A DNA stretch of 64,000 nucleotides from an uncultured Alphaproteobacteria bacterium (lineage in GTDB: Bacteria; Pseudomonadota; Alphaproteobacteria; MPNO01; UBA2964), in the NCBI GenBank assembly GCA_951812775.1, contig OX638326.1:3483391-3547390 (forward strand). Direction: 5' to 3'. The notes beneath the pieces were generated by a model, which saw only the letters and a program-made list of their open reading frames with translations, did no database searches and had not been told where the DNA came from. Shown one piece after another: positions 1,884 to 8,934 of the stretch (position 1 is its first letter; each line of letters begins with the position of its first letter). A program made the position numbers and the translations under genes.

Positions 1884-3470
1884 ATGGATACGATACGGAA
1901 CTTCGCGGAGGATGCTCGTGCCTGGCCCTTTGAAGAGGCCCGCAAGCTGCTATCGCGCATCAATGGCCAGGCGCCCGAAAAGGGCTACGTGCTGTTTGAA
2001 ACCGGCTATGGACCTTCCGGTTTGCCCCATATCGGGACCTTTGGTGAGGTGGTTCGGACCACGATGGTGCGGCAGGCCTTTACCGCGCTCACAGATATCC
2101 CGTCGCGCCTGTTTGCATTTTCCGATGACATGGATGGGCTGCGCAGTGTTCCGGACAATGTTCCCAACAAGGAAATGTTGGCGGAACATCTCGGCAAGCC
2201 GCTTTCGGTGGTGCCCGATCCGTTTGGCACGCATGAGAGCTTTGGCTACCACAATAACGCCCGTCTCCGAGAATTCCTCGATACGTTCGGATTTGAGTAC
2301 GAATTTCAAAGCGCGACCGAATGCTACAAAGAGGGCCGGTTCGACGCGACCTTGTTACATCTTCTGAAAAATCTGGAAGCCGTCACCCAGGTTATTTTGC
2401 CGACCCTTGGTCCCGATCGCCGGGCCACCTATTGTCCATTTCTGCCAATATGCCCGGATACAGGTGTGGTTCTCCAAATACCCGCAATTGCGCATGATGT
2501 TGATGCCGGAACGGTGACGTTTAAGAAGGATGACGGCAAAAATCTGGAAGTGCCTGTCACTGGCGGTCATTGCAAGCTGCAATGGAAGGCTGATTGGGCA
2601 ATGCGCTGGACGGCCCTTGGCGTGGATTATGAGATGTCGGGCAAGGACCTGATCGATTCCGTCAGATTGTCATCGCGGATTTGCAAGATACTTGGTGGTC
2701 GTGCGCCGGAGGGATTTACCTACGAGCTGTTCCTTGATGACAAAGGGGAGAAAATCTCCAAATCACGGGGCAATGGGCTGACCGTCGACGAGTGGCTGCG
2801 CTATGCGCCCGCGGAAAGTCTGCAGCTCTATATGTTCAATTCGCCGCGCAAGGCAAAGCGACTTTATTTCGATGTGATTCCGCGACATGTCGATGACTAT
2901 CTGACCTTTCTTGGAAAATATGCCGACGAAGAAGATCCCAAAAAGTTGGAGAATCCCGCCTGGCATATTCACAACGGCGCCCCACCGCAGGAAGACGGTC
3001 ATGTGACGTTCGGGCTTTTGCTGAATCTGGCCTCGGCCTGCAACACGGACGACAAATCTGTGCTGTGGGGATTCATTTCTCGCTATGCACCAGAAGCGAC
3101 ACCGGAAACGGCGCCAATTCTTGATCGCTTGGTTGAGCATGCAATCCATTACTATCAAGATTTTGTGAAGCCTGGGAAAACCTATCGCTCCCCGAACGAT
3201 CAGGAACGCGGGGCGTTGGAAGATCTGGCGAGCAGATTAGAAGACATGGACGTTGCTCTTGAGGCCAGCGAAATTCAGAACGAGGTCTATGCGGTCGGCA
3301 AAGAGCATGGCTTTGAAAATTTGCGCGACTGGTTCAAAGCGCTTTATGAGACCATGCTAGGCCGCGAACAGGGTCCTCGTATGGGTTCTTTCATCGCGCT
3401 CTATGGGGTTAATGAGACCTTAACCCTGATCCGCCGGGTTCTCGCCGGAGAAGACATATCTGACGGCTAA
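1884..3470 (+). CDS. lysK: Class I lysyl-tRNA synthetase
   Basis: Charges tRNA-Lys with lysine in the cytoplasm. It belongs to the archaeal-type class I LysRS family, which replaces the class II enzyme in many alphaproteobacteria. The HIGH-type signature PSGLPHIG lies at residues 44-51 and the KMSKS-type signature KISKS at 290-294, both in a Rossmann-type catalytic domain; the helical anticodon-binding region follows. The length of 528 residues is normal. A TTG at 1878 in the same frame would add two residues, but the ATG at 1884 is preferred. No second lysyl-tRNA synthetase is seen in the window. A terminator-like hairpin follows directly. Confidence 0.95.
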
Positions 3471-3603: not shown

Positions 3604-3909
3604 TTGATACATATTCTGTATCGACCGGAAAATGTGGGTGATGGGAAGGTTGGAGATGCGTGGGAGATCGCAAAATGGATTGCGAAACGGGAGTTTCCAA
3701 AACGCAGAAACAAGACCAGCACAGACCCTTCGTATGACCCGGAGGATTGGGTCTTCAATATTGCGAGAAGGTCTATTGCGAAGAAGTTGAGGAAGGAAGA
3801 CCCAGTAGAGTTCCATAAGCAGAGGAAAACCCTACAATCCCGTGTTGGTCGGTATATGCGAGCAGCAGACAAACACTTGGATAATGTGTGTAAGGGTCAG
3901 TTCCCGTAA
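3604..3909 (+). CDS. Hypothetical basic protein, 101 aa
   Basis: I do not recognise this ORF. It needs a TTG start (an internal GTG at 3634 is an alternative) and has no clear ribosome binding site. The product is strongly basic and has a central DPSYDPEDWVFNIARRS stretch. The DNA coding that stretch, 3730-3773, is repeated exactly at 4513-4556 in a different coding context, so this ORF lies in a mosaic of duplicated segments. The DNA is markedly more AT-rich than lysK. It may be a real accessory gene or a rearranged fragment. Confidence 0.35.
   Translation: MIHILYRPENVGDGKVGDAWEIAKWIAKREFPKRRNKTSTDPSYDPEDWVFNIARRSIAKKLRKEDPVEFHKQRKTLQSRVGRYMRAADKHLDNVCKGQFP
3730..3773 (+). repeat. 44-bp direct repeat, copy A
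   Basis: Identical to 4513-4556 in the same orientation. It begins TCGTATGACCCGGAGG and ends GAGAAGGTC. Sequence diverges completely on both sides. This copy is inside the 3604-3909 ORF. Confidence 0.85.
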
Positions 3910-4109
3910 AAATAGCGGGGTGTATTTTTCACAGGGAAGTTTCACACATACCCCTTCCAGTTTTAGGGAGGTGTTTGAGATTTCTTACTGGATACTATCG
4001 TGGTTTATAGATTGCGATTTGGTTGTGAGTTTTGATGGGGCAACATATTAAATTGACCTAAATTGTTTTTGTGGGTAAGTTCTTGTGGGTATAATTTCTG
4101 GAGGGTAAA

Positions 4110-4340
4110 ATGCGCCTTTTTTCCGTGTCTATCATCGCAGTAAGTTTATTGACAATATCAAGCGGTAGTTTTGCTCAAACATCTTGGCAAAACAGTCCTA
4201 ATAATTATAATAGTAAAAATGGTGTTTATAACAATAATGGTAACCGCACGGGATATTCTGTACAGAGGCGGGACGGAAGCGGCACAAATATATACGATAA
4301 TCAAGGGAATAGGACCGGTTATACTAATAGAAAAAGATAG
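4110..4340 (+). CDS. Small secreted Asn-rich protein with GNRTGY repeats
   Basis: A 76-residue protein with an N-terminal signal peptide (MRLFSVSIIAVSLLTISSGSF) and a probable signal peptidase I cleavage after SFA. The mature ~53 residues are Asn/Gly/Tyr-rich and contain two imperfect repeats, NGVYNNNGNRTGYS and TNIYDNQGNRTGYT, which suggests a short beta-strand repeat in the periplasm or outside the cell. A purine-rich GGAGGG precedes the ATG by 5 nt and is a good ribosome binding site. A truncated copy of the 5' end, including this ribosome binding site, lies at 5416-5506. Function unknown. Confidence 0.6.
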   Translation: MRLFSVSIIAVSLLTISSGSFAQTSWQNSPNNYNSKNGVYNNNGNRTGYSVQRRDGSGTNIYDNQGNRTGYTNRKR

Positions 4341-4512: not shown

Positions 4513-4556
4513 TCGTATGACCCGGAGGATTGGGTCTTCAATATTGCGAGAAGGTC
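4513..4556 (+). repeat. 44-bp direct repeat, copy B
   Basis: Exact copy of 3730-3773. It sits at the left edge of the recombinase remnant: the last bases (GAGAAGGTC) supply its first three codons. This marks a recombination junction in the 313-bp interval 4341-4653, which otherwise holds only that remnant. Confidence 0.85.
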
Positions 4557-5355: not shown

Positions 5356-5425
5356 ACGGAAAGTCTAGCAGAGAATGTCCGGAATGGGTAGAGAGAATGG
5401 GGTGTGATGGTTTTGGGAGGGTAAA

Positions 5426-5506
5426 ATGCGCCTTTTTTCCGTGTCTATCATCTTTTCCGTGTCTATCATCGCAGTAAGTTTATTGACAATATCAAGGTCA
5501 CAATGA
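5426..5506 (+). pseudogene. Truncated duplicate of the small secreted protein gene
   Basis: From the ribosome binding site (GGAGGGTAAAATG) this stretch copies the 5' end of the gene at 4110. It carries an extra in-frame 18-bp tandem duplication (TTTTCCGTGTCTATCATC twice), then diverges after ATATCAAG and stops at 5504-5506. It encodes only 26 residues with a hydrophobic signal-like stretch. It lies 20 bp left of the transposon end and is best read as a duplication fragment, although a short membrane peptide could still be made. Confidence 0.7.
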
Positions 5507-5525
5507 AATTTTTGGGAATTATATA

Positions 5526-5538
5526 CAATAGTGCCCAA
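5526..5538 (+). repeat. Terminal inverted repeat, left end of the IS1595-type element
   Basis: CAATAGTGCCCAA, reading inward. It matches the right end at 12 of 13 positions. It lies 18 bp beyond the stop codon of the last passenger ORF. Confidence 0.7.
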
Positions 5539-5555
5539 ACCTCGCGCCCTATCCC

Positions 5556-5717
5556 TTATTCTTCGCGGCGTTTCGCGCCGCCCTTGAGCGTCGCCTGGGC
5601 CAACCGCTTAGGCGTGACTGAAACGCTCACGTCTCGCTTCATGTCCTGCTTTGTCGGCCTATAGAACCGGTCCAATACAGTGCCGTAATTGGTGGTCTGT
5701 TTGGTCTTGCTGGTCAT
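5556..5717 (-). CDS. Small basic protein of the restriction-modification operon, 53 aa
   Basis: An ORF of 54 codons. Its ATG (5715-5717) overlaps the stop codon of the endonuclease reading frame as ATGA, the usual sign of translational coupling, and it ends 18 bp before the transposon end. The product begins MTSKTKQTTNYG and ends GGAKRREE. It is rich in Lys/Arg/Thr, with no membrane segment or recognised domain. The tight coupling and position make it a probable third component of the R-M module (control, stability or accessory function unknown). I do not recognise a family. Confidence 0.6.
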   Translation of the reverse strand: MTSKTKQTTNYGTVLDRFYRPTKQDMKRDVSVSVTPKRLAQATLKGGAKRREE

Positions 5718-6794
5718 GTTGCGTCATCCCCGTTGATGTTTGATAGAAGATCATGCCATGCACGCCGGTGGCGATGGTCTCCACGCCTATCCAGTTCCTT
5801 CCCTATTTCGCGCAGAAGTGTCGGCTGCCACTCTTCGGCGAGCAAGGCGAACCCCGCATTGGCGAGGTCCACGATGTCGATTTGACTGATATTCAGACCG
5901 GACGCCCAAGCCGCCTCCATGTTCTCGCGAATTGCGTTTTGCTCATCCTCTTGGATATGCGGTGCTGCGAACAGTAGACTTCTCAGCGGATCGTTTGACG
6001 CCCTCGCCTTCCTTGTTGAACTGCGAACATCCGCCAAGGTCAAGGCACGATCCTTGACCTCGACAGCCAAAACCATTTCGCCATTGTTATCCAGGCACAC
6101 CACATCGCCTGGGGCGCCTGTAGAAGAATCCGCCTCGTTCAGTCCTTGCGACGAGACTTCTGCGAAGATCGAAAACGCTTGGCCCAATACGGCCATCATC
6201 GCCGCCGTTACAGCCAACGGGCGTAAGCCGCCGCTCGGTTCCGCGATGAATTTCTCTAAAGCGCGGAGCATCTGAGGCAGGCTGACACGAAGCGGGACTT
6301 GATATCTGAAAGATTGGGCCGACAACCGCCGCGCCACGCTTTTTAAGCAACGACCGAACGCGGCTTCTAGTTCGCCTCGAGAGGCCGAGTCCAGGGGCAG
6401 CAGGAAGCAGACCAGGGCGTCCCATTCTTCCCTGTAGCGCAATTGGTCCGTTCCATCATCCAACCGAGGTCGGCGTAACGGGTTGTTGACATAAGGATCC
6501 GGGCTGCTCCCTAGAACATCGTGATTGTCCGGCTACCCACGGCACGATGACCGCCGAGCAGAAGCTCCGTGCATCCCATGTGCCAGGCGTTTTTCCGGTT
6601 CCCATCTGAAGGAACAACAGACTTCGGTGTTGGTTGGCAATCTTTCCCAAAATTTGGGTCAAGATCGCGTACCGAATAGACAGCACATTGGAATTCACAA
6701 GGCGGTCAATCTCGGTATCCGGGTCTCCCGGTTCATCTTCCAAAACCTGACGCCATGTGTCAGCGAGCCATTGACGGGCTTCTGAGTTGTCCAT
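5714..6794 (-). pseudogene. SacI-family type II restriction endonuclease, frameshifted
   Basis: Two reading frames together give one ~360-residue protein. The first frame (6794 to about 6530) ends in SFCSAVIVPWVA. Removing one base in the GCCGG at ~6529-6533 lets the second frame continue as DNHDVLGSSPDPYVNNPLRR and on through the ORF whose ATG is at 6463. The second part contains a PD-(D/E)xK-type nuclease core: GD (D120 of that ORF), then AVEVK (E135, K137). I recognise the whole as the SacI restriction endonuclease family, whose founding member cuts GAGCTC; the target here is unknown. Its start is 3 bp after the methyltransferase stop. As read, it would give two fragments and probably no active enzyme, unless the extra base is a sequencing error. 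Confidence 0.7.
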
Positions 6795-6797
6795 GGC

Positions 6798-7667
6798 TTA
6801 GAAGTTCAGCCAAGCCGATTCTTGGCGGGGCGTTCTCACGGAGTGGCAGTTTCGTTCTTCAGCATCCACGCGCCGCCATTTCCTATAGAGCCTGTCGTAA
6901 AGGTCCGTTCGATACCCAGACAGCACCACCCGCGCCCGCACGCTGTTCAACACCTCGGCAAGGTTTTCATGGTCCTTGTCGGTCATTTCATAGCCGTAGG
7001 CGGCTGAGTCGCCCCGTGCGGAATGCACATAGGGCGGATCAACATAAAACACCGTGAACGGCGTGTCGTACCGCTGGATGACTTCCGTTGCCGGGGCGTT
7101 CTCAATCTGCACCCGCTGTAGCCGCTGCGTAATTTCCGACAAACCCTCCACGGAACCGAGCCACCGAGAGACCGCGCCAGACATACCGGCGCGTGAGGTC
7201 AGAACGCAATGCGCCCATCGGCCCTCGCTACTTGTCTGCGCCAACCCTGTGCGGGTCTGTCGGGCACGAATATAGAACCGCCGGGCACGCTCCAACTTCG
7301 ACAACCCTCCTTCCAGGGTGCAGGCGCGGACAAGTTCCGCACGGGAGAAGGGCGTCAGGCCAATGGCCTTAATGAGCTTCGGCCCCCGGTTGCGCAACGC
7401 CTCGAAAAAATTTACGAGTTCCGAATCCAGGTCGTTATAGGTCTCTACCTGATAGGGTTCGATGTTCAGTAAAACCGCTGCCGACCCGCCAAATACATCG
7501 CAGAAGTGTGTGGCGTCATCCGGTATCAGCAGTAGAAGGAAATCAAGATGCGAAAACTTACCGCCATACCAGCCAAAGGCTATCCGCCGCTTCGAGCGTT
7601 TTTGTGCGATCCGTCGGCCTGTCCCCGTAGCATTGACCGTTGGGGCAAGAGCGTTTGTCGTAACCAT
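6798..7667 (-). CDS. D12-class (Dam-like) DNA adenine-N6 methyltransferase
   Basis: A 289-residue SAM-dependent methyltransferase of the D12/alpha class, which methylates adenine at N6 in DNA. Motif X (FGWYGGKF) is at residues 31-38, motif I (DVFGGSAAV) at 57-65 and the catalytic motif IV (DPPY) at 210-213. Its ATG overlaps the transposase stop codon by one base (TAATG). The endonuclease gene starts 3 bp after its stop, so it should protect the host from that endonuclease. The frame is intact although the endonuclease and transposase frames are broken, which fits loss of restriction before loss of modification. Confidence 0.9.
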   Translation of the reverse strand: MVTTNALAPTVNATGTGRRIAQKRSKRRIAFGWYGGKFSHLDFLLLLIPDDATHFCDVFGGSAAVLLNIEPYQVETYNDLDSELVNFFEALRNRGPKLIKAIGLTPFSRAELVRACTLEGGLSKLERARRFYIRARQTRTGLAQTSSEGRWAHCVLTSRAGMSGAVSRWLGSVEGLSEITQRLQRVQIENAPATEVIQRYDTPFTVFYVDPPYVHSARGDSAAYGYEMTDKDHENLAEVLNSVRARVVLSGYRTDLYDRLYRKWRRVDAEERNCHSVRTPRQESAWLNF

Positions 7668-8659
7668 TAGCTTCGCGCCCCGGAATCCAGTCCATTGTCG
7701 GCAATCAGGTCGCGGTAGCGAAGCCGCTTGCCATGCATCCCGGTGACAACCCGCGCCATCGGTTCCTTCGTGTCCGCGTTCCGGCTGTTATGCCGCCCTT
7801 CAAACTCTTTGACGTAGCGGTCCAGGTGCTTCGGGGACAGCTTGTGAAACGTGCCCTTGTGAGCGCGTTTCAGACCGGCCCGGAAAGATTCGATTTCGTT
7901 GGTATGCGCCATCAAGCGGACGTATTCGCCAGATGAGTGCCGCCCCGCTACATGGGTGCGCAGGATGCCCCTGTAGGCCGTCGCGTCGTCCGTGTAGACC
8001 TGCGCGCCCTCCTGGGACCGTGCCTCGACGAAACCCCGCAGGGTCTCCCCCACGGTATCACGGACCACGTTGGCGGCGACCTGATTGGTCTCACGGTCCT
8101 TAACGCCTGCCACGGCGGTCTTGCCAACGGCTCCGCGCCCCGTGAGGCCCTTCCGCCTGGATTTAGGCATGGTTCTCTTACGGACGCCGCCGAAGTACGT
8201 CTCATCGGCCTCTACCGGCCCCGCAAAAGGCAGGCTCACGCCATCATCCTCAAGCGCCTTGTGCGCAGCCGCATGGCAAGGTGCCAAGCGGCCTTCCGGG
8301 TAATATCCAGATCGCGGTGAAGTCTCATGCTCGATATTCCCTTAAGGCTCGTGGACATGAGGTGGATGGCGATGGCCCAAGTCTGAAAGCCGAGGTTTAG
8401 AGGCTTCCATGCATGTCCCGGTACGAACTGAAAAACGCTTGCGACATGCTTTCTCACGGCAACGGTAAGGCATGATCTTGTGCGCCGCGCCGGACAGCAC
8501 GTTGATCGATCCGCAATGTGGGCAATGCGGGCTATCGGTCCAACGTTCCTTGGTAAACCACTTCTCAGCGGCTTCGTCGTTAGGGAACATCTTGAACAGC
8601 TTTACGAGGCTGATGCCTTCACGATAGTGCTTGCCGGGTGCTTTCTGTGCCATGCTCAT
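7667..8659 (-). pseudogene. IS1595/ISXO2-family transposase, two frameshifts
   Basis: Three frames combine into one ~330-residue transposase. N-terminal frame (8659 down to about 8398): zinc ribbon CPHCGS...YRCREKACRKRFSVRTGT. Middle frame: MEAS-N-LGFQTWAIAIHLM through RKAAWHLAMRLR. C-terminal frame (from about 8265): HKALEDDG, then the ISXO2 catalytic domain with VEADETYFGG, YTDDATAY and NEIESFRAGLKR. One extra base near 8394-8400 and one indel near 8262-8268 break it. This family normally uses one continuous frame without programmed frameshifting, so the gene is probably inactive. The stop codon overlaps the methyltransferase start. Confidence 0.85.
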
Positions 8660-8670
8660 CTCCCTTGATC

Positions 8671-8683
8671 TTGGGCACTATCG
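8671..8683 (-). repeat. Terminal inverted repeat, right end of the IS1595-type element
   Basis: Reads CGATAGTGCCCAA inward on the minus strand, 12 bp upstream of the transposase start codon. Beyond it (8684 onward) the cheZ-like reading frame resumes. Confidence 0.7.
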
Positions 8684-8934
8684 AATCATTAGCGGCCCAG
8701 GGCGTCAAGACCTTTCGGGACCTCACCGGTCAGCGCGTAACCCAGCTTTCGAAATCTGTAGGCTATGTTGAAGAACGCGTATCAGCACTGCATGAATTGT
8801 GGGGCAAAGACGCGCTCGACAAAATTGAACCGGAGCCTGAAAAAGAACTATCCGAGGATGAAAAGCTCCTCAACGGTCCACAGGCCAAAGCCGAAGCTTT
8901 AAATCAGGCTGATATCGACGCAATGTTTGACTGA
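8684..8934 (+). pseudogene. CheZ-like chemotaxis phosphatase, C-terminal remnant
   Basis: About 83 codons remain. TFRDLTGQRV at the left corresponds to the DLTGQ motif that CheZ-type phosphatases use on CheY-P. It is followed by YVEERVSALHELWG and the conserved tail LLNGPQ...LNQADIDAMFD. The tail is the CheY-binding end of the family. The 5' half of the gene is absent: the reading frame begins at the edge of the transposon, and no 5' part is found at the other side (5525). No promoter or start belonging to the gene remains, so it is a fossil. It shows the ancestor had a chemotaxis/CheY pathway gene at this site. Confidence 0.7.

What the first reader, a model, noticed from the sequence alone, without database searches (positions are those of the whole stretch)
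5526..8683. Restriction-modification module carried as passenger of an IS1595/ISXO2-type transposon
Matching 13-bp terminal repeats enclose transposase, adenine methyltransferase, SacI-type endonuclease and a small ORF, all in one direction with overlapping or near-overlapping junctions. The methyltransferase ATG overlaps the transposase stop (TAATG). IS1595-family elements with passenger genes are known. An R-M cargo fused translationally to the transposase would give both mobility and post-segregational retention.
Basis: partly seen in the sequence, partly recalled or inferred. Interest (0 to 1): 0.75.

Follow-up and report, generated by a model that had tools for sequence, protein, structure and literature searches.

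The report
Jumping gene carrying restriction-modification genes
This is the broken remnant of a transposon that carried a DNA-restriction system as cargo, and intact relatives in the same genome show that this kind of transposon can pick up and move several different restriction systems, each placed directly behind its transposase gene.

Summary
The cargo claim holds; the stated boundaries and the intactness do not. The locus is an IS1595/ISXO2-family element carrying a D12 adenine methyltransferase, a SacI-type endonuclease and a small ORF on the minus strand. The true cargo-side end is the inverted repeat GGGAATTATATACAATAGTGCCCAAA at 5514-5539. The copy is dead: transposase and endonuclease are frameshifted, the methyltransferase is intact. 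A relative (L043, 78% methyltransferase identity) has near-perfect repeats enclosing a decayed transposase plus the same R-M genes. In the same genome a different IS1595 element (transposase + N4/N6 methyltransferase + BglII-like endonuclease, 2748 bp) exists in five copies; the four uninterrupted ones are identical and two keep matching 8-bp target duplications, so R-M-carrying IS1595 elements do move. Six of nine IS1595 lineages in this genome are followed by a DNA methyltransferase gene, starting at or near the transposase stop. I rate it a new variant of a known kind: a transporter IS with R-M cargo, recurrent and often stop/start-overlapping.

The parts
5514..5539 (+). Outer terminal inverted repeat at the cargo (distal) end: GGGAATTATATACAATAGTGCCCAAA
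   Evidence: Matches the family end GGG(G/A)ATTATATAC...AGTGCC of intact elements with 8-bp duplications; only GGGAATTATA in the window; 10 exact genome-wide hits to GGGAATTATATAC, several of them at the ends of the IS1595 copies studied here
5506..5513 (.). Presumed 8-bp target sequence AAATTTTT flanking the distal end; its partner is lost
   Evidence: Position relative to the end; A+T-rich like the targets of intact copies, e.g. AATTTTAA
5556..5717 (-). Small 53-aa ORF with Y(Q/R)P(S/T)K motif, start overlaps the endonuclease stop (ATGA)
   Evidence: Same motif just inside the distal repeat of L043, L138 and L139 and after the endonuclease in L035; no Pfam match
5714..6794 (-). SacI-type restriction endonuclease gene, inactivated by a +1 indel near 6532
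   Evidence: PF09566 in both halves; indel against L032, L033, L034 and L037
6798..7667 (-). D12-class adenine-specific DNA methyltransferase, 289 aa, intact
   Evidence: PF02086, PADLOC type II MTase 1e-45; no indels against relatives
7667..8659 (-). IS1595/ISXO2 transposase gene, disrupted by +1 (near 8399) and +2 (near 8263) indels; its TAA overlaps the methyltransferase ATG
   Evidence: PF12762, PF12760, NF033547; indels against L137, L138 and L143
8671..8681 (-).
   Evidence: Same place in six relatives; motif covaries with the outer repeat
8680..8708 (-). Transposase promoter-like sequence TTGACG-N17-TTCGAT
   Evidence: Lines up with TTGAA/TTGTC...ATGATT/TCATAG of L137, L138 and L143
8713..8934 (+). 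3' remnant of cheZ; the element boundary at 8712/8713 is a deletion junction
   Evidence: PF04344; intact cheZ between lysK and two methyltransferase genes in sister genomes; cheZ residues 1-109 otherwise absent from the genome apart from a 32% paralogue

Best explanation
The locus is a truncated, inactivated copy of an IS1595-family transporter IS: a transposon whose transposase gene is followed, inside the terminal repeats, by a type II R-M module and a small accessory ORF. Shown: gene content, distal end, lost proximal end, frameshifts, absence from eight genus-mates, and an enclosed relative. Inferred life cycle: one promoter makes a polycistronic message (transposase, methyltransferase, endonuclease, small ORF); the stop/start overlaps couple methyltransferase translation to transposase translation; the internal copy of the end motif lets transposase bind and repress its own promoter; DDE transposition moves the block with 8-bp duplications; methylation is installed wherever it lands and restriction makes loss of the block costly. 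Here, after insertion beside or in cheZ, a deletion removed the proximal repeat and the 5' part of cheZ; transposase and endonuclease decayed while the methyltransferase stayed open.
For: Domains. Ends and 8-bp duplications in intact relatives L137, L138, L139, L142, L145, L168. L043: 23/23-bp inverted repeats enclose transposase remnant, D12 methyltransferase, SacI-type endonuclease and small ORF, flanks agree 6/8. Five copies of a 2748-bp IS1595 element carrying N4/N6 methyltransferase + BglII-like endonuclease in the same genome; the four uninterrupted copies have 0 mismatches in 2746 bp; removing element plus one 8-bp copy gives a continuous ORF across both sites tested. Different methyltransferases overlap the transposase stop in L136, L143, L145 and L200. 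The window methyltransferase is absent from 8 genus-mates, while its closest relatives (up to 92% identity) lie in other proteobacteria and a Dadabacteria MAG, and all transposase-linked relatives fall in one 18-row clade (98/92). Sister genomes have intact cheZ without the element.
Against: This copy lacks the proximal repeat and any target duplication, so its own transposition cannot be shown directly. Most of the 80 nearest methyltransferase relatives have no transposase nearby, so the module does not need the IS. Coupling, autorepression and restriction-based retention are inferred. The frameshifts could in principle be assembly errors, although 2746 bp are identical in four copies of the other element.
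Confidence: 0.88

Rival explanations
1. One reading: a complete IS1595 transposon bounded by the repeats at 5526 and 8683 that is still mobile and addictive.
For: The 11-bp repeat is exact and rare.
Against: Family ends lie further out, the right copy is internal, the proximal end is deleted, and transposase and endonuclease are frameshifted.
Confidence: 0.04
2. Chance neighbourhood: an IS1595 copy landed next to a resident R-M operon, a common event in defence islands; the enclosure is coincidental.
For: R-M genes and IS elements often cluster; most module relatives lack the transposase; two insertion sites of the five-copy element are themselves in AIPR and Beta_protein genes.
Against: The enclosing repeats of L043 and of the five-copy element, repeated stop/start overlap with unrelated methyltransferases, and the module's absence from genus-mates. 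Control IS family PF01609: none of 10 first downstream ORFs is a methyltransferase.
Confidence: 0.06
3. An add-on to the best explanation rather than an alternative to it: the retained module is now a domesticated solitary methyltransferase (regulatory or protective), with the transposase remnant serving as a translated leader.
For: Only the methyltransferase is intact; in L032, L033, L034, L035 and L097 internally deleted transposase ORFs still read into the methyltransferase overlap, and L037 keeps a short leader.
Against: Decay may simply be incomplete; L043 and L044 remnants do not keep the frame; no expression data.
Confidence: 0.3

Closest known systems
IS1595 family transporter elements (tIS), e.g. 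ISNha5 with a transcription-regulator passenger, tISCpe8 and MTnSag1 (PMC11891212, PMC5704250)
   Same: IS1595-type DDE transposase, passenger genes inside the terminal repeats
   Different: Cargo is a complete R-M system whose methyltransferase start overlaps or lies close to the transposase stop; several unrelated R-M types carried in one genome
IS with methyltransferase passenger, IS220 of the IS1380 family (PMC11891212)
   Same: IS carrying a methyltransferase as passenger
   Different: Different transposase family; whether it also carries an endonuclease was not examined here
IS-linked movement of PaeR7I R-M in E. coli (PMC3031569)
   Same: IS and R-M move together, with restriction favouring cells that keep the joint unit
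   Different: There the R-M was on a plasmid that integrated mostly at chromosomal IS1 or IS5 copies; here the R-M is a resident gene block within one element

Membership tests
IS1595 family (ISXO2-like) | ISXO2-like DDE transposase domain with N-terminal zinc ribbon | tested here: met
   PF12762 6.8e-34, PF12760 2e-7, NF033547 7.2e-34 above cut-off; gene disrupted
IS1595 family (ISXO2-like) | Terminal inverted repeats at both ends of this copy | tested here: not met
   Distal repeat present at 5514-5539; proximal outer repeat deleted. Both ends are present in relatives, so this is a truncated derivative of the family, not a complete member
IS1595 family (ISXO2-like) | 8-bp target-site duplication | tested here: inconclusive
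   Cannot exist in the window copy (one end lost); exact in L137, L138, L139, L142, L145, L168
Transporter IS (tIS) | Passenger genes without transposition function between the terminal repeats | tested here: met
   R-M genes lie between transposase and the distal repeat here; fully enclosed in L043 and in the five-copy element
Type II restriction-modification system | Methyltransferase gene plus adjacent endonuclease gene | tested here: met
   PF02086 + PF09566; pair kept in most of the 80 relatives
Type II restriction-modification system | Intact endonuclease in this copy | tested here: not met
   +1 indel near 6532 against four relatives
Type II restriction-modification system | Methylation and cleavage at a shared recognition site | not testable with these tools
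   Needs methylome or enzyme assay; GAGCTC is not avoided in the window (10 observed, 10.1 expected), but the site of this enzyme is unknown
IS220-like elements (IS1380 family) | IS1380-type transposase | tested here: not met
   The transposase here is the IS1595 type

The most novel reading that the evidence does not exclude
One branch of the IS1595 family is a recurrent, specialised vehicle for R-M systems: a docking point just behind the transposase stop repeatedly captures unrelated methyltransferase-led modules (types II and III, amino- and C5-methyltransferases), with translation coupled to the transposase, giving self-spreading, self-retaining defence transposons.
Probability: 0.35. Interest if true: 0.75.

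Novelty: new variant of a known kind. Interest (0 to 1): 0.52.

Why it matters
R-M systems are known to move between genomes on plasmids, prophages, ICEs, integrons and IS/transposons (PMC4176335, PMC3031569). A small, apparently autonomous transposon that carries a whole R-M system, present in five copies in one genome with matching target duplications, makes the 'selfish R-M plus mobile element' partnership directly testable in a 2.7-kb unit. It also suggests a simple expression device, with the methyltransferase starting at the transposase stop.

Tried and rejected
The 11-bp repeat pair as element ends: rejected once six relatives showed the true outer repeats and an internal motif copy. 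Inversion or translocation of cheZ: rejected, its first 109 residues are not elsewhere in the genome except in a 32% paralogue. Two further ATAGTGCCCAA hits in the genome: they lie in unrelated sequence without a neighbouring IS1595 copy. Plasmid search: no match. End repeats in the other D12/SacI relatives: L032 shows a proximal repeat only; none found in L033, L034, L035 and L044. GAGCTC avoidance: none seen. Claim that R-M cargo is the norm for IS1595: rejected; outside this genome about 2 of some 47 sampled transposases are followed by a methyltransferase. Literature: three full-text searches for IS1595 with R-M or methyltransferase passengers showed no such report in their hit lists (not every hit was read), and the founding IS1595 paper (Siguier 2009) did not appear in the library, nor is the FEMS 2014 IS review held.

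Full report
What is in the sequence. On the minus strand, from about 8712 down to 5514, lie a promoter-like sequence, an ISXO2/IS1595-type transposase gene, a D12 adenine methyltransferase, a SacI-type endonuclease and a 53-aa ORF. Transposase stop and methyltransferase start overlap as TAATG; the endonuclease start is 3 nt after the methyltransferase stop; endonuclease stop and small-ORF start overlap as ATGA.

Where the ends are. Intact relatives start and end with GGG(G/A)ATTATA... followed in most by an AGTGCC or AGTCAC motif, and have exact 8-bp duplications: L137 CTTCTTTT, L138 AAACGAAA, L139 TATCGAAG, L142 CTTCGATA, L145 AATTTTAA, L168 TTTTTTTA. The window has this end only at 5514-5539. 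In the relatives a second copy of the inner motif sits just upstream of the transposase start, behind a promoter-like sequence, and it changes together with the outer repeat (GTGCC in both places in L137, L138 and L143; GTCAC in both in L136, L139 and L140). Such covariation is what transposase autoregulation would give; that step is inference.

What happened to this copy. Sister genomes G002, G003, G004 and G007 have lysK, then cheZ, then two methyltransferase genes, with no element. In the window lysK ends at 3470, about 2 kb of other sequence follows, then the element, and cheZ resumes only at 8713 with its 3' part. The first 109 residues are not elsewhere in the genome except in a 32% paralogue. 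So the proximal end and the 5' part of cheZ were deleted. The transposase has +1 and +2 indels, the endonuclease +1, the methyltransferase none. The copy cannot move by itself and probably cannot restrict; its methyltransferase may still work.

Is the R-M module really cargo? Of 80 methyltransferase relatives in species genomes, most keep the endonuclease next door, and eight have recognisable IS1595 transposase remnants upstream. The seven of these with the remnant directly upstream, plus the window, fall in one well-supported 18-row clade (98/92) with Alpha- and Gammaproteobacteria and a Dadabacteria MAG, while eight genus-mates of the window genome lack the gene. This fits one capture by an IS1595 element followed by horizontal spread and repeated loss of the transposase. 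In L043 (a chromosome-level MAG) the terminal repeats survive: 23 of 23 bp at 5490 and near 8128 enclose transposase remnant, methyltransferase, endonuclease and small ORF, with 6 of 8 flank bases agreeing.

The wider pattern in the same genome. Five copies of another IS1595 element (2748 bp) carry an N4/N6 methyltransferase (PF01555, 5.7e-51), starting on the transposase stop (ATGA), and a BglII-type endonuclease (PF09195, 1.7e-32). Four copies are identical over 2746 bp; the fifth is interrupted by another insertion. L145 and L168 keep matching 8-bp duplications; in L146 and L166 the flanks are exchanged (the right flank of L146 equals the left flank of L166), a sign of recombination between copies. 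Removing the element plus one 8-bp copy gives a continuous ORF at both sites, within an AIPR-domain and a Beta_protein-domain gene. Other IS1595 copies in this genome are followed by an N6/N4 methyltransferase fused to HNH, with a PIN gene further on (L136), type III mod and res (L147), C5 methyltransferases (L161) and a methyltransferase with a weakly Mrr-like gene in two copies (L163, L164). Distinct lineages with a methyltransferase next to the transposase: 6 of 9 here. Outside this genome only L140/L176 and L200 among about 47 sampled, plus L143 met separately. Among first downstream ORFs of a control transposase family (PF01609) none of 10 is a methyltransferase; that control is small.

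Mechanism. Best reading: one message from the transposase promoter, with methyltransferase translation coupled at the overlapping stop/start. Several internally deleted transposases (L032, L033, L034, L035, L097) still read in frame into the methyltransferase overlap, and L037 keeps a short leader, while L043 and L044 do not. This hints at selection for coupling but is not proof. Methylation wherever the block lands, and restriction-dependent retention, follow from general R-M biology and from the IS-linked PaeR7I experiment (PMC3031569); neither was tested here.

Comparison with the known. IS1595 elements with passengers are established as transporter IS: a regulator in ISNha5, lincomycin resistance in tISCpe8, and MTnSag1; a methyltransferase passenger is reported for IS220 of the IS1380 family (PMC11891212, PMC5704250). 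I found no report of IS1595 elements carrying complete R-M systems among the hits of the searches made, but the founding IS1595 paper was not available, so the absence is weak evidence. Hence: new variant of a known kind.

Noticed in passing
G000:C1:1035486-1038233 (L145), L146, L166, L168; L167 interrupted: Five copies of a complete R-M IS1595 element, four identical over 2746 bp; flank sequences swapped between L146 and L166, so copies have recombined with each other.
   Followed up: partly
L147:2993-8001 (G000:C1 about 1116000-1121000): IS1595 transposase followed by type III mod (apparently split) and res genes; the distal end was not located with confidence.
   Followed up: partly
L136:3012-7370 (G000:C1:3393011-3397369): IS1595 element with a methyltransferase-HNH fusion, a 313-aa protein and a PIN-domain protein; L162 also has an unknown protein plus a weak PIN match behind an IS1595 transposase.
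   Followed up: partly
window 5556-5717; L043 7966; L138 5376; L139 1601; L035 5649: Small ORF with motif Y(Q/R)P(S/T)K at the cargo-side end of several IS1595 elements whatever the cargo; a possible accessory protein with no Pfam match.
   Followed up: partly
window 4095-4162 and 5411-5496; 3730-3773 and 4513-4556: Near-exact and exact 42-44-bp direct repeats between lysK and the element; the element's left flank is a second copy of the start of the small secreted-protein ORF at 4110, suggesting a local duplication before or at insertion.
   Followed up: no
own-genome loci pooled with the window, 180 kb: GGATCC is scarcer than a Markov estimate (16 against 55) and AGATCT 23 against 46; the sample is not independent and contains repeated copies, but it might reflect a BglII/BstYI-like activity.
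   Followed up: no
L145 and L168 insertion sites: Two copies of the R-M element sit inside AIPR-domain and Beta_protein-domain genes.
   Followed up: partly
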